Shown: piece after piece, positions 15,849 to 50,086 of the stretch
How the letters are laid out: every line of letters starts with the position of its first letter
Position numbering within the stretch: position 1 is the stretch's first letter
From: Limosilactobacillus panis
GTDB taxonomy: Bacteria; Bacillota; Bacilli; Lactobacillales; Lactobacillaceae
Direction: 5' to 3'
Assembly (NCBI RefSeq): GCF_019797825.1
Contig: NZ_CP081855.1
Location: 1,302,001 to 1,366,000, forward strand
Length of the DNA: 64,000 nucleotides
Notes under the pieces: generated by a model
Seen by the model: the letters and a program-made list of their open reading frames with translations, nothing else
Told to the model about the DNA's origin: nothing
Database searches by the model: none
Position numbers and translations under genes: made by a program

Positions 15849-15955
15849 GAAGCTGGGGAAAAAGCACTAGAAACGCGCTTTTCCCCCGCAATTACTGCCT
15901 AATATTCAAGAATCGAAAGGAGGGTGGGAAAACTGTAACTTTCCCACCCTCTTTG
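15849..15955 (+). repeat. Interspersed element, shortened copy D
   Basis: It begins GAAGCTGGGGAAAAA, contains TTTTCCCCCGCAATTACTGCCTAATATTC (in two parts matching the element core at 33.3 kb), and ends in the hairpin AGGGTGGGAAA...TTTCCCACCCT. It lies in the 200-bp gap between rnc and acpP, with the hairpin next to the acpP stop codon, so it can serve acpP as a terminator. It lacks the middle of the full-length copies at 22.7 and 33.2 kb. Confidence 0.7.
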
Positions 15956-22691: not shown

Positions 22692-22914
22692 TGAGGCTGG
22701 TGAGAAAACTTTGTTTTCTCACCAGCCTCTTTTAGTACTCCGAATATTACACAACAATCGCGGAAAACTATAGGCGAACTTCACATCGAAGCGTGCTCCT
22801 TGTGTCTAGTGAAGCGAAGCAATCAATTGATTACGAACAATCATTGGACCGTTTCGTGCCAACGACTGTTCTATACTAGCCAAAGGCGCACTCTGATGCT
22901 TTTTTCCCAGCTTC
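22692..22914 (-). repeat. Interspersed element, full copy A (reverse orientation)
   Basis: Read on the minus strand it begins GAAGCTGGGAAAAAA seven bases after the rpe stop. It then matches the 33.2-kb copy nearly base for base in blocks: GGCTAGTATA, GTTGGCACG, CCAATGAT, CGTAATCAAT, AGGAGCACGCTTCGA, CCGCGATT and GTGTAATATTCG. It ends in a hairpin with perfect 17-base arms (22693-22709 and 22713-22729). It fills the gap between rpe and thiN and has no open frame of note. The end hairpin could terminate rpe transcripts. Confidence 0.85.
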
Positions 22915-22920
22915 CATTAA

Positions 22921-23574
22921 TTACTTAGTAGCGTTCCGCAGTGCTTCAACCTGCTTTGCTGGGTCATCAGCATTGAAGACAAAGGAACCAGCAACTGCAA
23001 CGGTGGCACCAGCCTTGTAGCAGTCGGTAACGGTCTTATCGTTAACCCCACCATCAACTTCGATGTCAAAGTCGTAGCCCTTTTGCTTCTTAATTTCGTT
23101 CAATTGGGCAATCTTTTCCACCGTTTCTGGCAGGAACTTTTGACCACCGAAGCCAGGGTTAACAGTCATGACCAGGACTTGGTCAACCATGTGCAGGACG
23201 GGTTCAATCATGGCTACTGGCGTACCAGGGTTGATAACAACTTCAGCCTTAACGCCGCCTTTCTTGATAATTTGCAGGGCCCGGTGGATATGCTGGGTGG
23301 CTTCTACTTGCACACCAATGATGTCGGCGCCGGCGTCAATAAACATTGGCAGGATATGTTCTGGATGTTCGACCATTAAGTGAACATCCAGGGTCATCTT
23401 GGTAATTGGACGAATAGCCTTAACAAAGCCAGGACCGTAAGAGATGCTTGGCACAAAAGTCCCATCCATCACGTCGATGTGGAGGTATTCAGCGCCCGCC
23501 TTGTCGACCTTTTCAATATCCTTTTGTAAATTTACGTAATCAGCACTCAAAATTGATGGTGCAACTTTAATCAT
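22921..23574 (-). CDS. rpe: Ribulose-phosphate 3-epimerase
   Basis: A 217-residue TIM-barrel enzyme interconverting ribulose-5-phosphate and xylulose-5-phosphate, feeding the phosphoketolase pathway. Motifs: VAPSILSADY, HIDVMDGTFVPSISYGP (metal His/Asp), DVHLMVEHPE, TVNPGFGGQKFLP and DIEVDGGVN. Start ATG at 23574 with GAGGGAATTAGA before it. It lies ten bases downstream of rsgA. Confidence 0.96.
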   Translation of the reverse strand: MIKVAPSILSADYVNLQKDIEKVDKAGAEYLHIDVMDGTFVPSISYGPGFVKAIRPITKMTLDVHLMVEHPEHILPMFIDAGADIIGVQVEATQHIHRALQIIKKGGVKAEVVINPGTPVAMIEPVLHMVDQVLVMTVNPGFGGQKFLPETVEKIAQLNEIKKQKGYDFDIEVDGGVNDKTVTDCYKAGATVAVAGSFVFNADDPAKQVEALRNATK

Positions 23575-23584
23575 TCTAATTCCC

Positions 23585-24457
23585 TCATTTCTTATAATTT
23601 GGCTTCTGGTTGACGATGATGTCGTGGAACTGGACATAGTCGTCATACCGACTCTTCATGATTATACCATGGTCTAGAGCATTCTTCACAGCGCAACGGG
23701 GTTCTTTCAAGTGTAGGCAGCCACGGAATTTACATTCCGGCGCCAGCCGCCGCATCTCTGGAAAGAGGTTCGGCAGCTCTTCAACAGTCATATCAAAGGC
23801 TTCATAAGAAGAAAAGCCTGGCGTATCCGCAATCAGGGCCCCATTGACATTCAAGAGGCTCACCTTTCTGGTTGTATGCCGGCCACGCTTTAAAGCCTGG
23901 GAAATCTCCCCGGTTGCCAAGTCAAGTTCAGGTGCCAGGTGGTTGAGGAGAGTTGACTTTCCCGCCCCCGTCTGACCCATCATCGTCACAACTTGACCAA
24001 TCAAAGGTTTTTGTAGGCGGCTTAACTGGTCTTTTGCAAACGGCTGCCGATTCACGAAGACCCAGTAGCCAATTTTAGAATAACCCGCCGCCACTTCCTG
24101 AATGTGGTCATACTGGCCATCGGTGAGGAGGTCGGTCTTTGAGAAGAAAATCAGTGGCGTAATTCCCTGCTCCTCTAAGCCAACCAACTGGCGATCCAGT
24201 AGGTTGGGTGAGAAGGTCGGCTGAATGGTGGCCGTTACCACCACCGCCATTGTGATGTTGGCGACAGGCGGTCGGACCATCTCGTTTTGCCGCGGGAGGA
24301 CCTTCAGGAGATAACCATCACTGAATTCAACCTGGTCACCAACTACCGGCTTGATCTTCTTCTTGCGGAAGTTGCCCCGCCCCCGGGTGCGGTAAATCTT
24401 TCCGTCCGCAATGACGTCGTAAAAGCCACTTAAAGACTGTTGAATAATTCCTTTCAC
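23585..24457 (-). CDS. rsgA: Small ribosomal subunit biogenesis GTPase RsgA
   Basis: A 290-residue circularly permuted GTPase that checks late 30S assembly. An N-terminal OB domain is followed by the permuted motifs FFSKTDLL (G4), [15 protein letters not shown] (G1) and [13 protein letters not shown] (G3). A C-terminal zinc knuckle has [20 protein letters not shown] (Cys-Cys-His-Cys). It is 14 bases downstream of prkC in the usual prkC-rsgA-rpe-thiN order. Confidence 0.96.
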
Positions 24458-24471
24458 TTTACACCTCTACT

Positions 24472-26403
24472 TTATCCTGTGATATTTGTTGCGCTCATAA
24501 TCGTCCGACCGTTTCTAACAACCCGGTAGGCCCCCATCTGACCGTTTTTAAGGGTAAATGGTACGTTAATGGTGGTCTCCTGGTTGATTGTAATATCCTG
24601 GTACTCCATCGTCAGATTATGGTTAGCGTCCCGGATGTAAATCTGGACCCGGTTCTCCCGCTGACCACCATTCCCGTCAAATGGGATGTTGATCTGGATA
24701 TTAGTGGTTTTTGTCTGGTTGCCAGAGTTTGCTAAAGTCACCGTCAGGGTATCACCGTGGTTAAGGGTACCGCCCGCTTTGGGTGTCTGACTGATAACGT
24801 GATTAGTGGCCACCGTCTTGGACTTTTTCTCCTGGGTCGTCAACTGTAACTTATGCTCGTTAGCAAACTTCTGGACAACGCTGACGTCCTGATTGCGGAA
24901 GTTCGGAATCTTGATATTCTGCTTGCCGGCACTAACCCGGAAGGTAATCGTGTCACCATTCGTGTTGACCGTCTTCCCCTTGGAGAAGTTCTGCTTCATG
25001 ATGGTCCCCGGGTCAGCGGTGTCTGAATAGACCTTCTGCTGGCGAACCAAAAAGCCCTTGTTGCGCAAGGAGTTGGCAACGGACGAGTAGTCGTCACCCA
25101 CGTAGTCCGCCATCTTCATGTTCTTTACCCCGGTGCTGACTTCGAGGTCAACACTGCCGTTGACCCGCTTCTTCGCGCTGACGCCGGGAGTGCTATCGAT
25201 GACGTGGTTCTTGGCTACCTGTTCACTGTTAACCCGGGTAATATTACCGACCCGCAGTCCCTGGGCATTCAAAAGACGCTCGGCCTGAATCGGAGTCTTC
25301 CCTTCAACGTCAGGCACAATGACCTGGCGGAACATAAACCACCAGGTGCAAATACCGGCGCCAATTGCCAGGATTGCGGCAAGGCCGCTAAGCCAGTACC
25401 AGAGGTGACGGTGCCCCTTCTTGGGTTGCTGATCAGTTTCCTGGTCGTCTTTTTCGTCCTGCTTGGCCGCGTGTTCCGCGTCGGCCTGCCTGATCTGCTT
25501 GGAGATCTCGGCGGCAGAAAGAACCTTGGTCTTTCCATCGTCGCACTTGACCTCCCAACGGGCTTCGTTGGCCCGCTTGGGATCAAGGCTGGTGGCAAGA
25601 TCTTTTTCCATCTCCTTGACATTTGCGTAACGCTCATGGGGGTCCTTGGCCGTAGCCTTGAGGACAACGTTTTCCAACGGTTGCGGGATCTTAGGGTTAG
25701 TCGACCGTACGGACGGGATATCCTCCCGGAAGTGCTTTAAGGCAATTGATACGGCCGTCTCCCCTTCGAAGGGTACGGAACCCGCCAACATTTCATAAAG
25801 GATGATCCCTAAGGAATAGATATCTGATTGTTTGGTTGCAATGCTTCCCCGCGCTTGTTCGGGGGAAAGGTAGTGTACCGACCCCATTAAGGTGTTGGTT
25901 TGGGTCAGTGAATTTTGGGAGGTCGCAACCGCAATCCCAAAATCAGTAATTTTTATGTTCTTGTTAGCATCAATTAAAATATTCTGCGGTTTTAGGTCAC
26001 GGTGAATAATACCGTGCGCGTGCGCGGTCTCCACAGCCAACAGGATCTGTTTCATAATGTCGACTACTTGGGGGAGCGGAATTGGGTAGTGTTCCTTGAT
26101 AAAAGCTTTTAAATCCGTTCCCTGGACGTACTGCATCACCATGTACTGCAACCCGTTATCCTCACCGACGTCGTAAACACCGACAATGTGGGGGTCGTTT
26201 AGTTGGGTTGCCGCCAGGGCTTCTCGGTGGAAGCGACGCTTGGTCTTGGGGTCGTCCCGCAAGTCCAAACGGAGCAGTTTGATTGAAACGTCGCGATCTA
26301 AAACCATGTCATGAGCTAAGTAAACGGTTGCCATTCCGCCCTCACCTAAAGAGCGGATAATCCTGTATCGGTGACCGATCGTTTCTCCAGGATTCATACT
26401 CAA
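24472..26403 (-). CDS. prkC: PASTA-domain serine/threonine protein kinase PrkC (Stk1)
   Basis: A 643-residue membrane kinase. The cytosolic kinase domain (1-270) has GEGGMATVYLA, the Lys of VSIKLLRLD, HRDLKPQNILI, DFGIAVA and a threonine-rich activation loop. An acidic linker leads to one membrane helix (about 335-358, WYWLSGLAAILAIGAGICTW). Three PASTA repeats outside (about 362-560) are presumed to sense muropeptide or lipid II. A C-terminal beta-rich tail follows. It overlaps stp, its cognate phosphatase, by four bases. Confidence 0.95.
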   Translation of the reverse strand: MSMNPGETIGHRYRIIRSLGEGGMATVYLAHDMVLDRDVSIKLLRLDLRDDPKTKRRFHREALAATQLNDPHIVGVYDVGEDNGLQYMVMQYVQGTDLKAFIKEHYPIPLPQVVDIMKQILLAVETAHAHGIIHRDLKPQNILIDANKNIKITDFGIAVATSQNSLTQTNTLMGSVHYLSPEQARGSIATKQSDIYSLGIILYEMLAGSVPFEGETAVSIALKHFREDIPSVRSTNPKIPQPLENVVLKATAKDPHERYANVKEMEKDLATSLDPKRANEARWEVKCDDGKTKVLSAAEISKQIRQADAEHAAKQDEKDDQETDQQPKKGHRHLWYWLSGLAAILAIGAGICTWWFMFRQVIVPDVEGKTPIQAERLLNAQGLRVGNITRVNSEQVAKNHVIDSTPGVSAKKRVNGSVDLEVSTGVKNMKMADYVGDDYSSVANSLRNKGFLVRQQKVYSDTADPGTIMKQNFSKGKTVNTNGDTITFRVSAGKQNIKIPNFRNQDVSVVQKFANEHKLQLTTQEKKSKTVATNHVISQTPKAGGTLNHGDTLTVTLANSGNQTKTTNIQINIPFDGNGGQRENRVQIYIRDANHNLTMEYQDITINQETTINVPFTLKNGQMGAYRVVRNGRTIMSATNITG

Positions 26404-27146
26404 CCCTCCTGGCTATAATCATTAATTCCAATTAAGACGGTGATATTATCGGGGCCCCCCGCTTCGTTGGCCTTCTTAACAAGGCGTGCACACTTCTGGT
26501 CAATTGGAACCTGGTCGTCACTTAAGACTGCCTTTAATTCATCCTTTTCGACAGTCTTAAAAAGCCCATCGGAGCACATCAGAAGTTTATCGCCGTGAGT
26601 AAATTTAAAACGGTTTACTTCAATTTGTGCATCAGGTGAAATTCCAATTGCCCGGGTAATAATGTTGCTTTGGGGAAGTTTTAAGGCCTCTTCTTCTGTG
26701 ATATCGCCACTCTTGACGAGTTCGTTTACCAAGGAATGGTCAATTGTGACCTGGGTCATCATGTCATTATGCAAAAGGTAGCCACGACTATCCCCAATGT
26801 TGGCCACGACGAGGCTCTTTTTAAACGCCACGGCGGCGACCATGGTCGTGCCCATCCCTCGGTAGATTGTTTGTTGTTTTGATTTCTTTAATAATTCATC
26901 ATTAATAAGCTGGACTTCCCGGGCAAACCACCGAATTGCTTCGATTGGTTTCTCCGGTCCGTTCTCAATGAAGCGGTGACCGAGACGTTTAACCGTCATT
27001 TCAGCGGCAACATCCCCACTGCGATTTCCACCTATACCATCGGCAATCACCACTAGTTGATTCCCGCGTTTATCGGTAAATTGGGCCACTCGGTCCTGGT
27101 TTTGTGACCGGCGGTGCCCCACATCGGTTTGATAAGCAACCTTCAT
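26400..27146 (-). CDS. stp: PP2C-type protein serine/threonine phosphatase
   Basis: A 248-residue metal-dependent phosphatase. DVGHRRSQNQD, IADGIGGNRSGDVAAEM, VANIGDSRGYLL, MCSDGLFKTVE and GGPDNITVLI carry the Asp ligands of the two metal ions. It removes phosphates placed by PrkC. Its ATGA stop-start overlap with prkC shows translational coupling. Confidence 0.95.
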   Translation of the reverse strand: MKVAYQTDVGHRRSQNQDRVAQFTDKRGNQLVVIADGIGGNRSGDVAAEMTVKRLGHRFIENGPEKPIEAIRWFAREVQLINDELLKKSKQQTIYRGMGTTMVAAVAFKKSLVVANIGDSRGYLLHNDMMTQVTIDHSLVNELVKSGDITEEEALKLPQSNIITRAIGISPDAQIEVNRFKFTHGDKLLMCSDGLFKTVEKDELKAVLSDDQVPIDQKCARLVKKANEAGGPDNITVLIGINDYSQEG

Positions 27147-27164
27147 CTTGGTGCTAATTCCCTT

Positions 27165-28511
27165 CTACAGATTTCGCTGGAGACTACTGATAAAAAAGCC
27201 GTCAGACCCGTAGTCGGATGGCAAAATTGTTAACGTTGCCGTGAAGCGATCATCCTTCAACTTCCGTGCAGTCTGTGTTTTAACCAGAGTAAAGTCTGGG
27301 TGGGCAGCTAAGAAGTCCTTAACTGTCTGATCATTTTCTTGTTTCATGATTGTGCACGTACTATATGTGATTATACCGCCTTTTTTCAGTTTTGGGGCAA
27401 CCGCATTTAAAATACTCAACTGAATTTTGTGCAAATTCTGACTATCTGTCAATTTCTTAGTATAGCGGATCTCCGGTTTGCGGCGTAGTAAGCCCATCCC
27501 GCTGCAGGGTGCGTCCACCAGGATTTTATCAAAGGTCCCATCAGCAAACACATCGTCAACCTTCCGGGCGTCCAATGTATGGGTCCGGACCCGGTCAGCG
27601 ACATGAAGGCGCCGGGCGTTTTTCTCAATCAGCCGGGTCTTATGCTGGTGGATATCCAGGGCATCGACTTGACCGCCCACCGTAGGATCCAGGTATTCGG
27701 CAATCTGGACCGTCTTACCACCGGGTGCGGCACAGGCATCCAGGACCCGGTCGCCGGGCTGAACATTCATACTATCGACCGGCAACATGGCACTTTCATC
27801 CTGGATGGTCACCGCCCCGTCACTAAAGAGGGTGGAATTAAGGACATCCCCACCGCTAATTACCAGGGCATTGGGGGCAACTTGACTTCCCTGGTAGGTT
27901 ACCCCTTCCTTGGTCAACTGCGCTTTTACCGTAGCCAGGTTAGTCTTTGCCGTGTTGACACGGATGACCAGGCGTGCCGGTTCATTAATGGCCGATAGGA
28001 CCTTTGCTGCCGTTGCTTGGCCATATTGGTTAACCAGCTCCTTGACGATCCATTCGGGCACGCTGGCGGAGATGGCTAGGCGCTTGATGGGGTCCTTAAT
28101 CTGGTTGAGGTCGGTAACTCCCTTTTTGAGGATGGCGTGCAAGACCCCGGTGGTGAAGCGACGGATGCCTGGGTTCCCCCGGTGCTTGGCAATTTCAATC
28201 GTCTCATCGGTCACCGCCCAGTTGGGGACCCGTTCCAGGTAATGGTACTGGTAGAGGGCCGTCAACAGGAGGCTTTCTACCCAGGAATCGACCTTCTTGT
28301 CCTTGATGAAGGGAGTTAACCAGTATTCCAGTGTTAATTGGTGCTGCAAGACCCCGTAGACGATGTTGGTAGCCAGCCGCCGGTCCTGGTCATTCAGCTG
28401 GGCCCGATTAAGGAGCTGGTTCAGCTGAAGATTTGAGTAGGCGCCGTTTTGCCGGACCCGGTCAATAGCGGTTAGGGCAACCGTCCGGGCCGTTGCTTTT
28501 TCCTTAGTCAT
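27165..28511 (-). CDS. rsmB: 16S rRNA (cytosine-967-C5)-methyltransferase RsmB
   Basis: A 448-residue enzyme with an N-terminal NusB-like RNA-binding domain (1-140) and a C-terminal Rossmann methyltransferase. DACAAPGGKTVQIAEYL binds S-adenosylmethionine. VDAPCSGMGLLRRKPEIRY and TYSTCTIM supply the two catalytic cysteines. It overlaps the fmt stop by eight bases and precedes stp. Confidence 0.96.
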   Translation of the reverse strand: MTKEKATARTVALTAIDRVRQNGAYSNLQLNQLLNRAQLNDQDRRLATNIVYGVLQHQLTLEYWLTPFIKDKKVDSWVESLLLTALYQYHYLERVPNWAVTDETIEIAKHRGNPGIRRFTTGVLHAILKKGVTDLNQIKDPIKRLAISASVPEWIVKELVNQYGQATAAKVLSAINEPARLVIRVNTAKTNLATVKAQLTKEGVTYQGSQVAPNALVISGGDVLNSTLFSDGAVTIQDESAMLPVDSMNVQPGDRVLDACAAPGGKTVQIAEYLDPTVGGQVDALDIHQHKTRLIEKNARRLHVADRVRTHTLDARKVDDVFADGTFDKILVDAPCSGMGLLRRKPEIRYTKKLTDSQNLHKIQLSILNAVAPKLKKGGIITYSTCTIMKQENDQTVKDFLAAHPDFTLVKTQTARKLKDDRFTATLTILPSDYGSDGFFISSLQRNL

Positions 28512-29457
28512 CGGTGACTGCTTGCCCTCCTTCGTGCAGGTCCTGGTGGCCGTTCAGGTAGGCGGTGATGTCCATCGCCTGCTTACCAGCCGGCTTCAGG
28601 CGGTTAATTTGGTAAGTTGTCCCCTGACCGGCTGCCAAAACTAGCTGGTGCTTGGTCAGGTGAACGACCTTACCGGGAGCCAGCGTCGTCTTTTTATCCA
28701 GGGGGGTCACGTCATAGATCTTGGTCCGCAGGCCGTCAATGATCATGTTCCCCAGGGGGGCCGGCCGCAGTCCGCGGACCTTATCGTCAATCTGCTGGGC
28801 AGTCATCCGGTAGTCAATCCGTTCCTGGGCCGTCGTGATGTTTGGCGAAAAGACAACTTTGGATTCGTCCTGCGGGGTCGCTTCTACGTCGCCCTGGACC
28901 AACTTCGGCAGGGTTTCTAGTAGGAGGTCCCGACCGAGGAGACTGAGTTTTTTAAACATCGTCCCGTTATCGTCGTCCTTTTCAATCGGGATGGCACGTT
29001 GGGCAATGACGTCCCCCGCATCCATCTTCTTGACCATGTACATGATTGATATTCCGGTCTCGGCATCCCCGTTAATGATTGAGTACTGAACGGGGGCCCC
29101 ACCACGGTACTTCGGCAGGAGAGAACCGTGGACGTTGATAGCCGCAATCTTGGCCGCGTCCAGCATCTTGGTCGGTAGGAACTGACCATAGGCAGCCGTG
29201 ATCATGAGGTCAGGTTGCATGGCGATGATCTCGTCCATCTCAGGACTCTTGTTAAGCTTGGCGGGTTGGAGAACTTTGATATTATTTTCTTGAGCCAGCT
29301 TCTTGACGGGAGATGGGGTCAGAACGTGTTTACGTCCCACCCGGTGGTCCGGCTGCGTTAGAACAGCCTGAACGTCGTATTCCGGCGCGTCAATTAAGCT
29401 TTGAAGAATTGGGACTGCAAATTCGGGTGTCCCCATAAACACGATTGAAGTTGCCAT
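28504..29457 (-). CDS. fmt: Methionyl-tRNA formyltransferase
   Basis: A 317-residue enzyme that formylates initiator Met-tRNA. MGTPEFAVPILQSL, NVHGSLLPKYRGGAPVQ with the catalytic Asn-His, MYMVKKMDAGDV (catalytic Asp), and an OB-like C-terminal domain are present. It lies between priA and rsmB. The deformylase gene is not in the window. Confidence 0.96.
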   Translation of the reverse strand: MATSIVFMGTPEFAVPILQSLIDAPEYDVQAVLTQPDHRVGRKHVLTPSPVKKLAQENNIKVLQPAKLNKSPEMDEIIAMQPDLMITAAYGQFLPTKMLDAAKIAAINVHGSLLPKYRGGAPVQYSIINGDAETGISIMYMVKKMDAGDVIAQRAIPIEKDDDNGTMFKKLSLLGRDLLLETLPKLVQGDVEATPQDESKVVFSPNITTAQERIDYRMTAQQIDDKVRGLRPAPLGNMIIDGLRTKIYDVTPLDKKTTLAPGKVVHLTKHQLVLAAGQGTTYQINRLKPAGKQAMDITAYLNGHQDLHEGGQAVTDD

Positions 29458-29474
29458 TATTTATCTTCCTTTCA

Positions 29475-31904
29475 TCACATAAAGTACTGTGGGTCCGGGT
29501 CAATGCTGACCTGAACATCCTTAAAGCTCTTACTCTGAGTGTTTTGCAGAATTTCAAATAGTACCCGGTGTAAAGCCGGGTCTCTCTTATATTTAATTAC
29601 AATCTGGTAGTAGTAACGCCGCTTCATCCGGGCAATTGCTCGTGGGGTTGGCCCCAGGATAATCGTCGATGGGGCCAGCGCTTTTTGTAGTTGATCATGG
29701 ATTTCAGCCATCGCTTGGGCCGCGGTCCGTTCCTCGGGATGGCTGGCCATCAGCCGCACCGTGTAGTAGTAAGGCGGGTAACTGGCCTGGTGACGCAGGC
29801 TCATCTCCTGGTAGAAGAAGCGTTCGTAGTCATGAGCCTGGGCGTCTTTAATTGCGTAGTGACCAGGGTTAAAAGTCTGAATGATTACTTGCCCCTGCTT
29901 GTTGGCCCGGCCAGCACGACCACTCACCTGGCTGAGGAGGTCAAAGGTCCGTTCACTGGCCCGAAAATCAGGAAGGCCAAGACCGGTATCGGCATTTAAG
30001 ACCCCCACCAGGGTAACGTTAGGAAAGTCGAGTCCCTTGGCAATCATCTGGGTCCCTAAAAGGATATCCGCTTCGTGGTTACCAAATTTGCGGAGGAGCT
30101 TCTCGTGCATCCCCTTCCGCCGGGTTGTATCGACATCCATCCGGATGATCCGGGCAGTCGGAATCAGCTGGCGTAGCTCGGTCTCGACCTTCTCCGTCCC
30201 GGTGCCGTAGTAACGAATATGGCGACTATGACAGTGGGGACAGATCTGGGGAATCGGCTCCTCATGGCCGCAATAATGGCATTTCATCGTCCGGGTATCC
30301 ATGTGGAGGGTCAACGAGATATCACAGTTTGGGCACTTCAGAACCTCCCCACAGTCCCGGCACATCATAAACGAGGAAAAGCCCCGCCGGTTGAGCATCA
30401 AGATACTCTGCTCCCCCCGGGCCAAGCGTTGGTTCAATTCGTACAGGAGGGGGGCCGAAAAGTTGCTCTCCCCGCGCTTCTTGATCTCGGGCCGCATGTC
30501 AACGACCTGGATCGGTGGGAGGGGCTGCTTGTTGACCCGGTGCGGTAACCTGAGGAAGCGGTAGACCCCCTTCAGTGCCCGCGCCCGGCTTTCTAGGCTA
30601 GGGGTTGCCGAACCAAGGACTACCGGCGCGTTATTATACTTACCACGCCACTTGGCCACTTCCCGGGCATGGTAACGCGGGGACTCGTCCTGCTTGTAGC
30701 TGGATTCGTGCTCCTCATCCAGGATGATCAAGCCGAGGTTAGTCAGGGGGGCAAAGATGGCGGAACGGGCACCCACGACCACCTTGGCTTCCCCCCGTTC
30801 GATCCGCCGCCACTCATCATAGCGTTCACCACTGGAGAGACTACTGTGAAGAACCGCCACCTGGCTACCAAACCGCCGGCGAACCCGGTTGACAATCTGG
30901 GGAGTCAAAGAAATCTCGGGCACGAGCATTAGGGCTGTCCGTCCCCGGGCCAGGACCTGAGAAATGCTCTGTAAATAGACCTCAGTCTTGCCGCTTCCGG
31001 TTACCCCCTGTAAAAGAAAGGTGGTGGCCGTCTGGTCCTTAACGGCGGCGCCAATCTGGTCAACGGCTTCCTGCTGGTCAGGATTTAGTTTTAACGGTTT
31101 TTCAAGTTGGTGGTCATCAGGAAGGGCCACCTGGGATTCTGGGCGCCGGTACACTTCAACTGGAACCTTTTTGAGCCAGCCCTTCTTTGCCCCCTGGTTG
31201 AAGGTCGAAGAAGACAGCTGGGCCCGCCGTTCGGCCTCCTTTTGAACAACTGTCTTGCCAATAATGCTCTGTAGGTAGGACAGGAGGCGGTTTTGGGCAT
31301 GGGCGTTGGCATGAAGAGATGTCCGCGCATCCTCTAATTCCTCAAAACTGAGTAAGGGGGTCAGCCCCATCACTGTCTTTGCCCGGGCCCGGTCAGTAAC
31401 TTCGTAGTCAATCCGGACCTTGCCTGCCCGCTTTAGCTTGAGGAGCTGGTTGATGGCGTCCGGATTATTGGCGAAATCAGTGTAGTTGCGCTCATCCTTG
31501 CCATTAAAGAGATCAAAGCAAGTCTGCTCATCGAGGTCGTCAATGACACGAACAATCCGCTTACTCTTCCCCTTCAAGAGGTTGGGAAGCATCGTGTACA
31601 GGCAGGCAATCCAAAAGGAATAGGTTGTATCTGCCAGCCACTTGCTAAGGGCTAATAGTTCCTGATTGACAACCGGCTGGAGGTCCATCACGGCCTGGAT
31701 GGGCTTGAGCTTGCCCGCATAATCGGTCGAGTCTGTGAAGCCGACCACGAAGCCCTGGACCTGGCGGTGACCATTGCCAAAGGGAACAACGACCCGCATG
31801 CCAACCTGAAGTTTTTTCTCTAAAATAACCGGCACTTGATATGTATATGGCTGGTTGGTCTGCATTGTTGGAACATCAACCACAACCTGTGCCAATTCAA
31901 CCAT
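29475..31904 (-). CDS. priA: Primosomal protein N' (replication restart helicase PriA)
   Basis: An 809-residue helicase that reloads the replisome at repaired forks. It has an N-terminal DNA-binding domain, then LLQGVTGSGKTEVYLQSI (motif I), ILDEEHESSYKQDESPRYHAR (motif II) and GSATPSLESR. A zinc-binding insert carries CRDCGEVLKCPNCD and CHYCGHEEPIPQICPHC. Motifs V and VI follow (VSGRAGRANKQGQV). Adjacent to coaBC with no gap. Confidence 0.97.
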   Translation of the reverse strand: MVELAQVVVDVPTMQTNQPYTYQVPVILEKKLQVGMRVVVPFGNGHRQVQGFVVGFTDSTDYAGKLKPIQAVMDLQPVVNQELLALSKWLADTTYSFWIACLYTMLPNLLKGKSKRIVRVIDDLDEQTCFDLFNGKDERNYTDFANNPDAINQLLKLKRAGKVRIDYEVTDRARAKTVMGLTPLLSFEELEDARTSLHANAHAQNRLLSYLQSIIGKTVVQKEAERRAQLSSSTFNQGAKKGWLKKVPVEVYRRPESQVALPDDHQLEKPLKLNPDQQEAVDQIGAAVKDQTATTFLLQGVTGSGKTEVYLQSISQVLARGRTALMLVPEISLTPQIVNRVRRRFGSQVAVLHSSLSSGERYDEWRRIERGEAKVVVGARSAIFAPLTNLGLIILDEEHESSYKQDESPRYHAREVAKWRGKYNNAPVVLGSATPSLESRARALKGVYRFLRLPHRVNKQPLPPIQVVDMRPEIKKRGESNFSAPLLYELNQRLARGEQSILMLNRRGFSSFMMCRDCGEVLKCPNCDISLTLHMDTRTMKCHYCGHEEPIPQICPHCHSRHIRYYGTGTEKVETELRQLIPTARIIRMDVDTTRRKGMHEKLLRKFGNHEADILLGTQMIAKGLDFPNVTLVGVLNADTGLGLPDFRASERTFDLLSQVSGRAGRANKQGQVIIQTFNPGHYAIKDAQAHDYERFFYQEMSLRHQASYPPYYYTVRLMASHPEERTAAQAMAEIHDQLQKALAPSTIILGPTPRAIARMKRRYYYQIVIKYKRDPALHRVLFEILQNTQSKSFKDVQVSIDPDPQYFM

Positions 31905-33113
31905 CTAATCACCTAATTTCAACTTTTGTCCTAAAAGTTTCATTATTCTTTGGGCAACCGCATTCTTGCTCATCTTAGGCCACCTATCCGGGGTCGCATC
32001 CGGGGTCAGAATCGTCACCTGGTCGTCCTCACTGGCAAAGGCACTGCTGGGTCCCCCCACCTGGTTAGCCACGATGATATCCGCCCCCTTGCTGGCTAAC
32101 TTCCGTTGAGCATTGGCTAAGAGGTGCTGGGTCTCGGCCGCAAAGCCGACCACGACCTGGTCCGGCCGCTTGGTCTTGGCAACGGTTTGCAAGATATCGG
32201 GGGTCTCAACCAGTTTGATGGCCCATTCGTCGTGCTCCGATGTCTTCTTAACCTTTTCTGCGGCAGCCTTGACCGGCCGGTAGTCCGCCACGGCCGCTGC
32301 CATAACCAGGGCATCCGTTTTAGTGAAGTGGTCTTGAACAGCAGCCAGAAGTTCCTCAGTGCTTTCCACGTGGACAACTTCAACCTGTGGCGAATCAGGT
32401 AGGCCAACGCTGACCTGGCCGACAATCAGAGTCACCTGGGCACCCATGGCAGCAGCTGCCGTAGCCAAGGACACCCCCATCTTACCGGATGACCGGTTAC
32501 CGATGAAGCGGACCGGGTCAATATTTTCCCGGGTCCCCCCCGCGGTAATTAGGACTCGCTTACCAGCAAGTTCTTGCGGGGCCGGCGCCAAGAGTGATTG
32601 AACCTGTTTCACAATTGCGGCTGGTTCTGGCAGGCGACCCTTACCAGAGTAGCCCTCCGCCAAAAGCCCATCCACCGGACTGATGATGTGGACCCCGTCA
32701 CGGCGCAATTGTTTCAGGTTCCGCTGGGTTGCTGGGGCGGTAAGCATATGGGAATTCATGGCCGGAACCACCACCTTGGGCGCCGCGGTGGCCAGTAGGG
32801 TCGTCGAGGCAGCATCGTCAGCAATTCCCGTCGCCATTTTGGCAATGATGTCCGCAGATGCCGGCACAACCACCGCCATTTGTGTCCAGTCCGCCATCTC
32901 AATGTGGGGAATTGGTGTATTGTCGTTATCCCACAGGGAGGTGAGCACCGGCTGTTTGGTTAGTGCCGCCAAGGTCGTGGGGTTAACCAGCCGGCAGGCA
33001 GCCGGGGTCATCACCGTTTTGATTTTGTGCCCGGCTTTTTGCAAGCCCCGGACAACTTCAATTCCTTTATAGGCGGCCACGCTTCCCGTCAAATACACTG
33101 TTATCCTTGCCAT
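31905..33113 (-). CDS. coaBC: Bifunctional phosphopantothenoylcysteine decarboxylase / phosphopantothenate-cysteine ligase
   Basis: A 402-residue coenzyme A biosynthesis fusion. The N-terminal flavoprotein (CoaC, 1-180) has LTGSVAAYKGIEV, PASADIIAKMATGIADD and PAMNSHMLTAPATQRNL. The C-terminal ligase (CoaB) has ITAGGTRENIDPVRFIGNRSSGKMG and FAAETQ. The stop codon lies directly before the priA start. Confidence 0.96.
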   Translation of the reverse strand: MARITVYLTGSVAAYKGIEVVRGLQKAGHKIKTVMTPAACRLVNPTTLAALTKQPVLTSLWDNDNTPIPHIEMADWTQMAVVVPASADIIAKMATGIADDAASTTLLATAAPKVVVPAMNSHMLTAPATQRNLKQLRRDGVHIISPVDGLLAEGYSGKGRLPEPAAIVKQVQSLLAPAPQELAGKRVLITAGGTRENIDPVRFIGNRSSGKMGVSLATAAAAMGAQVTLIVGQVSVGLPDSPQVEVVHVESTEELLAAVQDHFTKTDALVMAAAVADYRPVKAAAEKVKKTSEHDEWAIKLVETPDILQTVAKTKRPDQVVVGFAAETQHLLANAQRKLASKGADIIVANQVGGPSSAFASEDDQVTILTPDATPDRWPKMSKNAVAQRIMKLLGQKLKLGD

Positions 33114-33171
33114 TTCTTCACCTCATTAAAAGTCATAATCCGTTATGATTATAGCATTTCCCTAATAAAAA

Positions 33172-33401
33172 AGAAGCTGGGAAAAAATCATCAGAGGGCT
33201 CCGTATGGCTAGTATATGACGATCGTTGGCACGGTACGGGCCAATGATCGTCCGTAATCAATGGACTTGCTGCGCGGCGCTAGACACTAGGAGCACGCTT
33301 CGACGCGGAGCAAGCCTATTTGGTTTTTCCGCGATTACTGTGTAATATTCGAAGAACTAAACGAGGCTGGTGAGAAAACAAAGTTTTCTCCCAGCCTCGT
33401 T
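33172..33401 (+). repeat. Interspersed element, full copy B
   Basis: A 230-bp element filling most of the 321-bp gap between coaBC and rpoZ. It starts GAAGCTGGGAAAAAA and ends with a hairpin (arms ACGAGGCTGG...AGAAAAC and GTTTTCTCCCAGCCTCGT). Thus its two ends are imperfect inverted repeats of GARGCTGGGARAAAA. Inside are an imperfect palindrome around TTGGCACGGTACGGGCCAA and the core CCGCGATTACTGTGTAATATTCGAAG (26 bases, 33329-33354, quoted in parts elsewhere). Here the element is opposite in direction to the surrounding genes. No protein-coding frame is evident. Confidence 0.85.
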
Positions 33402-48383: not shown

Positions 48384-48460
48384 TTTTATGTGTTGATATA
48401 TCAACGTTTTAAGCAGTTTGGTCCCCCAAATGTACCCCACTTACAATTTATAATTTAAAA
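48384..48460. other. Gap after tRNA-Arg with possible integrase-tail scar
   Basis: It contains the perfect palindrome GTTGATATATCAAC (48392-48405). On the minus strand there is a short frame K-W-G-T-F-G-G-P-N-C-L-K-R ending in TGA at 48401, which resembles the tail of some tyrosine integrases. No longer coding frame is attached. This may be a remnant of an integrated element at the tRNA 3' end. It is suggestive only. Confidence 0.25.
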
Positions 48461-48611
48461 TGGGGCTGGGAAATTGGCTAAGCTTCGCGGTACTAGACGC
48501 TAGGGATGCGCTTACGACACGGAGCTGGCCTATTTAGTTTCTCATAATCACATTATAATATTAGAAGATGCAAGAGTGGCTGGGAGAAAAAATAGTTTTC
48601 TCCCAGCCACG
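48461..48611 (+). repeat. Interspersed element, shortened copy C
   Basis: It starts GGGGCTGGGAAATTGG and then jumps to GCTTCGCGGTACTAGACGCTAGG and CGCTTACGACACGGAGC, matching the second half of copy B. It keeps TAATATTAGAAG and ends in the hairpin GTGGCTGGGAGAAAA...TTTTCTCCCAGCCAC. About 80 bases of the middle are missing. The end hairpin faces the 3' end of the decayed Rpn gene. Confidence 0.75.
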
Positions 48612-48640
48612 ATTTTTTCTGCCATTGTATACTTATATTT

Positions 48641-49843: not shown

Positions 49844-49897
49844 TCTTTTAATGATTAATTTGGGAAGGCTTTTTTAATCATAGCTTTCCTAAACGCA

Positions 49898-50023
49898 AAG
49901 GGAGTGAGACAGAACTAGCTTGCTAGTTCGTTTTTCGACGCGAAGCTAGCCTGTAGGAAACCCCCGCAAGCACAAAGGGGACTCTAGCGTTCAGAAAATC
50001 CGAACGCTAGAGTCCCCTTTGTG
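49898..50023 (+). repeat. Repeat-like element with perfect 22-bp hairpin (distant copy E)
   Basis: It begins GGGAGTGAGACAGAA, holds the palindrome ACTAGCTTGCTAGT and TTTTTCGACGCGAAGCTAGCC, which resembles CGACGCGGAGCAAGCC of copy B, and ends in a hairpin with perfect 22-base arms (49971-49992 and 50002-50023) around a 9-base loop. No T-run follows at once, so it is not a plain terminator. It lies between the small membrane gene and the end of the three-gene unknown operon. Confidence 0.55.
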
Positions 50024-50086
50024 TACTGCGCTGTAGCATTTTCAACTATATAGAAGACTTACGTCACAACTCCTTTTTTTTAATGC

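What the first reader, a model, noticed from the sequence alone, without database searches (positions are those of the whole stretch)
22692..33401. Family of about 230-bp interspersed elements bounded by GAGGCTGGGA inverted ends
Copy A (22692-22914, minus) and copy B (33172-33401, plus) match in order over their full length: GAAGCTGGGAAAAAA, GGCTAGTATA, GTTGGCACG, CCAATGAT, CGTAATCAAT, AGGAGCACGCTTCGA, CCGCGATT, GTGTAATATTCG, then a terminal hairpin. The first and last 15 bases are inverted repeats of each other, as in a MITE. The interior has conserved palindromes but no coding frame, which suggests a structured RNA or a protein-recognised DNA. Copies sit in gene gaps in either direction, so they are not just gene terminators. 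I know no name for this element.
Basis: seen in the sequence. Interest (0 to 1): 0.75.

Follow-up and report, generated by a model that had tools for sequence, protein, structure and literature searches.

The report
Modular RNA-folding repeat at gene terminators
A family of about 180-base repeats, scattered through the genomes of sourdough and gut lactobacilli, folds into a conserved RNA shape and sits where genes end, in places taking over from their stop-transcription hairpins; it resembles known bacterial mini-repeats, and no catalogue or paper searched here described it.

Summary
Copies A and B belong to a dispersed family: 46 covariance-model matches in this genome and 47 in Limosilactobacillus panis DSM 6035, the same species. 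Reading it as a MITE bounded by inverted ends does not hold well. The conserved unit is a ~175-nt core without the terminal hairpin. Its nested helices P1-P4 are kept by compensatory change across the genus (357 double-change cells against 124 shuffled, 0/500). G-U cells outnumber A-C cells 225 to 33, so the plus strand is the one that folds. A strong hairpin follows the core in 30 of 53 panis and 39 of 52 distant copies (flank controls 3 of 103, 3 of 104). No copy of 46 classified lies between divergent genes. At two strain-polymorphic sites the element replaces a terminator-like hairpin without target duplication; at a third a second copy starts inside another copy's hairpin. Internal 23-nt arms come and go. 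No Rfam match. Closest: BOX, SPRITE and, from memory, EFAR. Best reading: an uncatalogued modular, RNA-structured miniature element of terminators. Its mover is unknown; no Y1 transposase in either panis genome.

The parts
33173..33351 (+). Copy B, conserved RNA core (P1-P4 plus 23-nt arm modules)
   Evidence: R1 match 209.3 bits; alignments A1, A3
33179..33189 (+). Copy B, 5' strand of helix P1 (GGGAAAAAATC); its 3' strand is split by the 3' arm module (33297-33301 and 33325-33330)
   Evidence: P1 columns 7-17 with 129-133 and 158-163 of A3, 94-98% of cells paired
33196..33202 (+). Copy B, 5' strand of helix P2 (pairs with 33290-33296)
   Evidence: all 7 P2 pairs of A3 have changes on both sides
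33217..33253 (+). Copy B, hairpin P4 (33217-33231 with 33239-33253)
   Evidence: 11 of 15 P4 pairs of A3 have changes on both sides
33258..33279 (+). Copy B, 5' arm module (optional, about 23 nt)
   Evidence: present or absent independently of the other arm; 23-mer match on the minus strand with 3 mismatches
33301..33323 (+). Copy B, 3' arm module (optional, about 23 nt)
   Evidence: 42 such sites in the genome, 11 of them outside the elements whose positions I had
33363..33398 (+). Copy B, terminal terminator-like hairpin (not part of the genus-wide core)
   Evidence: fold; hairpin enrichment 3' of cores
22741..22914 (-). Copy A, conserved RNA core
   Evidence: R1 match 189.7 bits
22693..22729 (-). 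Copy A, terminal hairpin
   Evidence: loop orientation differs from the DSM 6035 orthologue
48413..48614 (+). Degenerate copy with terminal hairpin
   Evidence: R1 match at 48413-48564, E 7.5e-5; sequence
15849..15951 (+). Much reduced copy (core 15849-15908) followed by a hairpin
   Evidence: R1 match E 5e-5; sequence

Best explanation
This is a modular, non-coding, non-autonomous interspersed element whose selected product is a structured RNA. The core folds as one nested set of helices. P1 joins the two ends (GGGAAA.AAGC with GCTT..TTTCCC); P2, P3 and the hairpin P4 lie inside it. Two optional 23-nt arms, complementary to each other, can be inserted, one inside P2 and one inside the 3' strand of P1. 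The element occupies terminator positions: usually just after a stop codon, with its 3' end running into a strong hairpin. New copies arise, at least at some sites, by replacing or entering a resident terminator hairpin. Co-transcribed copies probably act as a folded 3'-UTR or terminator cassette, terminating in both directions through the end hairpin and protecting the mRNA 3' end. Shown: family, fold and strand, position, replacement at two sites, a copy starting inside another copy's hairpin at a third, and module gain and loss. Inferred: transcription, terminator and stability function, and the unknown enzyme or recombination route that installs it.
For: Copies: 46 and 47 model matches in two panis genomes, and 27 of 50 genus genomes with a match, these two included; a second model adds G012 and G037, so 27 is a lower bound. 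Fold: on 60 copies (46 of 60 fetched distant ones plus 14 panis ones) 94.2% of cells are paired, against 77.4% shuffled and 38-46% slid; 357 double-change cells against 124. Strand: in the nested helices 225 G-U cells against 33 A-C (summed); in panis 132 against 19. Single copies fold far below shuffles, z -6.5 and -8.2. Position: 0 divergent, 18 convergent and 28 co-directional of 46 classified loci, out of 59 scanned. Hairpin 3' of the core: 30 of 53 and 39 of 52, against 3 of 103 and 3 of 104 in flanks. Replacement: copy B site and L002 site, where DSM 6035 has a hairpin; at the L023 site DSM 6035 has a second core beginning inside the end hairpin of the first. Modules: L015/L146 share flanks but differ inside, and L027/L128 share a site in opposite orientation.
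Against: 11 of 46 classified loci lie antisense to both neighbours, so read-through from the neighbours would not make the folded strand. A cruder gene call gave 6 of 53 loci, three orthologous pairs, as divergent; one of these pairs, copy A, is certainly miscalled, the other two rest on the better script alone. At one more polymorphic site (L130/L159) the empty allele shows no hairpin. At L132/L160 and L010/L162 the other strain has a hairpin on the left but the right flanks differ. 23 of 53 panis and 13 of 52 distant copies failed the hairpin criterion. G-U does not exceed A-C in every helix: 4 against 11 in P1a and 6 against 11 in the 3' mini-hairpin. The arm-arm helix shows no covariation, and P1b was not significant on panis copies alone. 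No RNA data were available.
Confidence: 0.58

Rival explanations
1. Classical MITE: the ends are terminal inverted repeats cut and joined by the transposase of a resident IS. The internal folding is incidental, and the terminator position only reflects purifying selection against other insertions.
For: Strain polymorphism and imperfect inverted ends in panis copies. Enrichment between convergent genes is also found for pneumococcal repeats and IS elements and was read there as tolerance (PMC3049150, passages).
Against: No target duplication at the three comparable empty sites, read by eye. The inverted ends are not conserved across the genus. Compensatory change across species with strand bias is not expected of a passive interior.
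Confidence: 0.17
2. Selection acts mainly on single-stranded DNA: the folded plus strand is the transposition substrate of a hairpin-recognising recombinase, and any RNA role is secondary.
For: Strand-specific folding, hairpin targets, orientation difference at one site (L027/L128) and a hairpin-loop flip (L009/L139). The usual enzyme of this type, Y1_Tnp (PF01797), is somewhat commoner in carriers: 20 of 27 genomes with a match of the element against 11 of 23 without.
Against: Y1_Tnp is absent from both panis genomes, which carry the most copies, and from five other carriers, G006, G041, G045, G061 and G003. Other recombinases were not tested.
Confidence: 0.15
3. RNA-mediated mobility: the folded RNA is copied by a reverse transcriptase, perhaps that of a group II intron that itself prefers terminator hairpins (preference recalled), and is inserted at terminators.
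For: RNA-level selection. Group II intron ends (RF00029) abut the core in L005 and L020, and a matching end hairpin lies about 1.9 kb further on at both sites.
Against: The introns use the element as a target, which does not show that they move it. Intron presence was not correlated with copy number. Fixed 5' ends need an RNA-processing step.
Confidence: 0.1

Closest known systems
BOX elements of Streptococcus pneumoniae
   Same: Interspersed, modular (boxA, a variable number of boxB, boxC), predicted to fold as RNA, enriched between convergent genes (PMC3049150, passages seen).
   Different: BOX has terminal inverted repeats and makes target duplications (same source). Here the inverted ends are not conserved and no duplication was seen. 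No sequence relation was tested.
SPRITE of S. pneumoniae
   Same: Terminator-like and close to gene 3' ends, strongly enriched between convergent genes (PMC3049150, passages).
   Different: SPRITE is an 18-bp stem with a U-rich tract. Here a separate multi-helix core precedes the terminator hairpin.
EFAR / Efa-1 of Enterococcus faecalis
   Same: Efa-1: 163 bp, 65 copies, a pair of adjacent stem-loops, listed as intergenic (PMC2267715, passages). That Efa-1 equals EFAR is my recollection. From memory only, the EFAR paper (Venditti et al. 2007) reports modular assembly and integration into stem-loops that are mostly deleted, as at two sites here.
   Different: The EFAR paper is not held (the search did not list it), so sequence and fold could not be compared. 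The nested P1-P4 fold and its cross-genus covariation are described here.
REP/BIME elements moved by RAYT (Y1) transposases
   Same: Palindromic extragenic repeats (recalled; abstracts listed).
   Different: Much larger and multi-helix. No Y1_Tnp in either panis genome.

Membership tests
MITE | Short, non-coding, dispersed, strain-polymorphic | tested here: met
MITE | Conserved terminal inverted repeats | tested here: not met
   present in panis copies, absent in other lineages of the same RNA family such as G056 and G041
MITE | Target-site duplication at empty/filled pairs | tested here: not met
   none at copy B, L002 or L130 sites, read by eye
MITE | Resident autonomous IS with the same ends | not tested
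   no IS library was available
BOX element | Modular assembly with optional middle modules | tested here: met
   all four combinations of the two arm modules occur
BOX element | boxA/boxB/boxC sequence | not tested
   no BOX sequence was fetched for comparison
BOX element | Target duplication on insertion (stated in PMC3049150) | tested here: not met
EFAR (recalled definition) | Empty sites are stem-loops that are largely lost on insertion | tested here: inconclusive
   seen at copy B and L002; left side only at L010, L132 and L023; not seen at L130
EFAR (recalled definition) | EFAR sequence and its double stem-loop | not testable with these tools
   paper not held
Any Rfam family | Match at the gathering score | tested here: not met
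   (window: only a tRNA and the L21 leader, elsewhere); at relaxed thresholds list only matches below gathering, e.g. L247 21.9 bits against 80.4
REP moved by a Y1 transposase | Y1_Tnp in the same genome | tested here: not met
   0 in G000 and G047; present in 20 of the 27 carriers and in 31 of 50 genomes overall
Intrinsic terminator | GC-rich hairpin with T tract downstream of a stop codon | tested here: inconclusive
   strong hairpin 3' of the core in 69 of 105 copies, T tract not required; stop-proximal position; termination itself not measured

The most novel reading that the evidence does not exclude
A previously undescribed class of mobile RNA: a ~175-nt structured RNA that is itself the unit of selection, that colonises transcription terminators genus-wide by swapping out the resident hairpin, and that exchanges 23-nt arm modules with other repeat families. 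It would rewire gene 3' ends without any transposase ends or target duplications.
Probability: 0.25. Interest if true: 0.85.

Novelty: new variant of a known kind. Interest (0 to 1): 0.6.

Why it matters
Small interspersed repeats are usually treated as decayed transposons. Here one carries a multi-helix RNA fold preserved by compensatory change across more than half of the genus genomes searched, at sites where it can replace terminators. That makes it testable whether such repeats are functional 3'-UTR or terminator cassettes, and how an element without conserved transposon ends finds hairpins. It would also be a new Rfam-type family for lactobacilli used in food and probiotics.

Tried and rejected
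Phage and plasmid collections: no match to copy B. Rfam at relaxed thresholds: nothing at gathering over the core in copy A or in eight loci of other species. A GTAATC/GATTAC helix was dropped: 97.9% paired but no covariation. The arm-arm helix is paired in 81% of cells without covariation; I describe complementary arms, not a proven helix. RNAalifold on its own predicted only part of the structure (20 pairs). A first flanking-gene script called 6 of 53 loci divergent and mis-called the copy A neighbour; the hexamer-scored one gave 0 of 46, with 13 of 59 loci unclassified and some neighbours 280 nt or more away. A first terminator detector missed bulged stems (19 of 54 panis, 35 of 52 distant; 5' side 10 of 55 and 15 of 60). 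A loose energy criterion did not discriminate well (42 of 53 and 43 of 52, flank controls 62 of 103 and 58 of 104). One search is the one used. Rows dropped: three fragment loci (L024, L028, L029), and stretches with N; 23 of 59 panis loci from A1; 14 of 60 distant loci from A3 (masked bases or near duplicates). Y1 transposase as mover: not supported in panis, though somewhat commoner in carriers. A first alignment had minus copies unturned and was redone.

Literature: ten searches listed no title or abstract that describes this element; this covers only the held open-access library and its listed rows. Of papers I saw passages only: PMC3049150, PMC2267715, PMC10969869, PMC2229807. The EFAR paper and the insertion preference of group IIC introns are recalled.

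Full report
WHAT IS THERE. They belong to a dispersed family. Copy B as a DNA query gives 51 matching pieces in its own 2.13-Mb genome. A covariance model built from 36 of 59 panis loci gives 46 matches there and 47 in G047. G047 has the same contig numbers and match places as G028, the genome reached through locus L048, Limosilactobacillus panis DSM 6035, so I take them as one assembly. The window is 98.8 and 99.6% identical to that strain over two long stretches around priA, so it comes from L. panis or something very near it.

GENES AROUND. Copy A lies between rpe (PF00834) and a thiamin pyrophosphokinase gene (PF04263). Copy B lies between coaBC (PF04127, PF02441) and rpoZ (PF01192).

ANATOMY. 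Aligning panis copies and then 60 copies from many Limosilactobacillus genomes shows that the conserved unit is a core of about 175 nt, 33173-33351 in copy B. The end hairpin does not belong to it. In G056 and G041 the cores run into various hairpins, some of them looking like the neighbouring gene's own terminator. The inverted ends seen in panis are missing there; G045/G046 copies have a different 5' end but a GAGGCTGG end hairpin.

FOLD. Five helix segments fit as one nested structure: P1 in two parts, P2, P3 and P4. On 60 distinct copies (46 of the 60 distant copies fetched, plus 14 panis copies) 94.2% of cells are standard pairs, against 77.4% in shuffles and 38-46% with slid partners. 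28 of 38 pairs have changes on both sides, and 357 cells have double changes against a shuffled mean of 124, with 0 of 500 shuffles as high. All seven pairs of P2 have such changes. Lineages use quite different P2 sequences; examples are GCGCCCT/AGGGCGC, GAGCCCC/GGGGCTC and GTGGGGC/GCCCCAC (read). Relatedness inflates such counts, but the slid controls keep relatedness and stay low. I drew the structure on these sequences myself, which favours it over the slid versions for percentage paired above all.

WHICH STRAND. If the palindromes mattered as double-stranded DNA, G-U and A-C cells should be about equally common. In panis they are 132 and 19; in the 60-copy set the nested helices sum to 225 and 33. 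Most of the excess comes from P4, P1b and, in panis, the arms; P1a goes the other way, 4 against 11, as does the 3' mini-hairpin in panis, 6 against 11. Cells count related sequences, not events. The plus strand is therefore the likelier folding one. Single copies fold at z -6.5 (B) and -8.2 (A) on that strand, and -5.4 on the minus strand of B.

MODULES. Two stretches of about 23 nt, roughly the reverse complements of each other, are optional. Copies with both, either or neither exist. They are conserved in sequence and do not covary, so I do not claim that they pair. The motif occurs at 42 places in the genome with up to 3 mismatches, with 0 for the backward control. Eleven lie outside the elements whose positions I had (the element list was truncated, so 11 is an upper estimate). 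One is inside a second repeat family at window 49895-50085.

WHERE IT SITS. With hexamer-scored ORFs, 46 of 59 panis loci could be classified: 18 convergent, 17 co-directional with the element in sense, 11 co-directional antisense, 0 divergent. A cruder script gave 6 of 53 divergent (three orthologous pairs); the copy A pair among them is a miscall. Fifteen sites are shared between the two genomes, so the 46 are not all independent. Among window gaps of at least 40 nt, 3 of 27 are convergent and 2 divergent, so the lack of divergent sites alone is weak evidence and the excess of convergent sites is moderate. A hairpin of at least 11 bp lies within 70 nt 3' of the core in 30 of 53 panis copies and 39 of 52 distant copies; 5' of the core in 2 of 55 and 3 of 60; in flank controls in 3 of 103 and 3 of 104.

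HOW IT ARRIVES. Of 29 loci examined in G000, 15 have an orthologous copy among the 30 loci held from DSM 6035; the rest were not all looked for. Copy A is shared; copy B is absent from DSM 6035. The DSM 6035 allele of the copy B gap has a short hairpin flanked by A and T runs, and most other species shown have hairpins in that gap, by eye, so gain in the window strain is the simpler history. At the L002 site DSM 6035 has a terminator-like hairpin where the window strain has the element. At the L023 site both strains have an old copy, and in DSM 6035 a second core begins inside the end hairpin of the first, after its first three bases; the right side is lost at a contig end. At L130 the empty allele has a 12-base unrelated stretch. 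At L132 and L010 the other strain has a terminator-like hairpin on the left, but the right flanks differ; at L133 it has an old, diverged copy. No target duplication was seen at the three comparable sites. At the rpe gap (copy A) Ca. L. intestinipullorum has a lone hairpin, GAAGCTGGGAAATGCATTTTCCAGCTTC, whose arms resemble the element ends. Sites can also change in place: opposite orientation at L027/L128, swapped modules at L015/L146, a flipped hairpin loop at L009/L139.

DISTRIBUTION. In a draw of 397 family genomes 22 match, 7 of them in other genera, with only six candidates scored per genome, so these are lower bounds. Three of the seven have the copy after a nearly identical gene, an asparagine synthetase (Pfam run on one of the three), which looks like horizontal transfer of that region. 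The 80 named priA loci, each at most 22 kb, gave three matches at E <= 1, all in Limosilactobacillus.

MECHANISM. I commit to a terminator-associated RNA element: stop codon, folded core, terminating hairpin. Transcription, termination and protection of the 3' end are inferred, not measured. The 11 antisense loci are best seen as insertions by the same route that are silent, or that only supply the hairpin. The mover is unknown. Y1 transposases are absent from both panis genomes and from five other carriers, yet over the genus they are somewhat commoner in carriers, 20 of 27 against 11 of 23, so a past role is not excluded. Group II intron ends abut the core in L005 and L020, with a matching hairpin about 1.9 kb on; this suggests that the hairpin is recognised as a target and does not show who moves the element.

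COMPARISON. It works like BOX in being modular and RNA-folding, like SPRITE in its terminator position, and, as recalled, like EFAR in replacing stem-loops. It fails the MITE and BOX criterion of target duplication at the three sites tested, and no sequence link to any of them could be tested. I file it as a new variant of the known kind 'modular miniature interspersed repeat', notable for a deeply conserved, strand-biased RNA fold.

Noticed in passing
window 49895-50085: A second interspersed repeat family with a 25-nt, 96% complementary palindrome (49971-50023) and one copy of the same 23-nt module; matches in L396, L028, L011/L142 and, more distantly, in L039, L062, L064, L065, L066.
   Followed up: partly
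L005 1425-1501 and L020 1648-1724: Group II intron ends (RF00029) abutting the element core, with a matching end hairpin about 1.9 kb further on, as if the intron had entered between core and hairpin.
   Followed up: partly
L008, 3' end of the element: The core is fused to another repeat (GGGAGCGTGACAGAAGTCATTTATGACTTCG...) that also fills the rpe gap of L. vaginalis (L065; also L066).
   Followed up: no
L230 (G041:C40): The 23-nt module is inserted at an unusual third position, between P2 and P3 on the 5' side, in addition to the usual two.
   Followed up: no
L383, L387, L388 (three genomes of other genera): A related RNA directly after a nearly identical asparagine synthetase gene, followed by what looks like a partial second copy, suggesting horizontal transfer of the region.
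   Followed up: partly
L009/L139 end hairpin: The loop is inverted (AAAG versus CTTT) between orthologous copies of two strains, as template switching in a hairpin could give.
   Followed up: no
L155 (DSM 6035, contig C67): Two element cores in tandem: the second begins three bases into the end hairpin of the first and runs into a contig end.
   Followed up: partly
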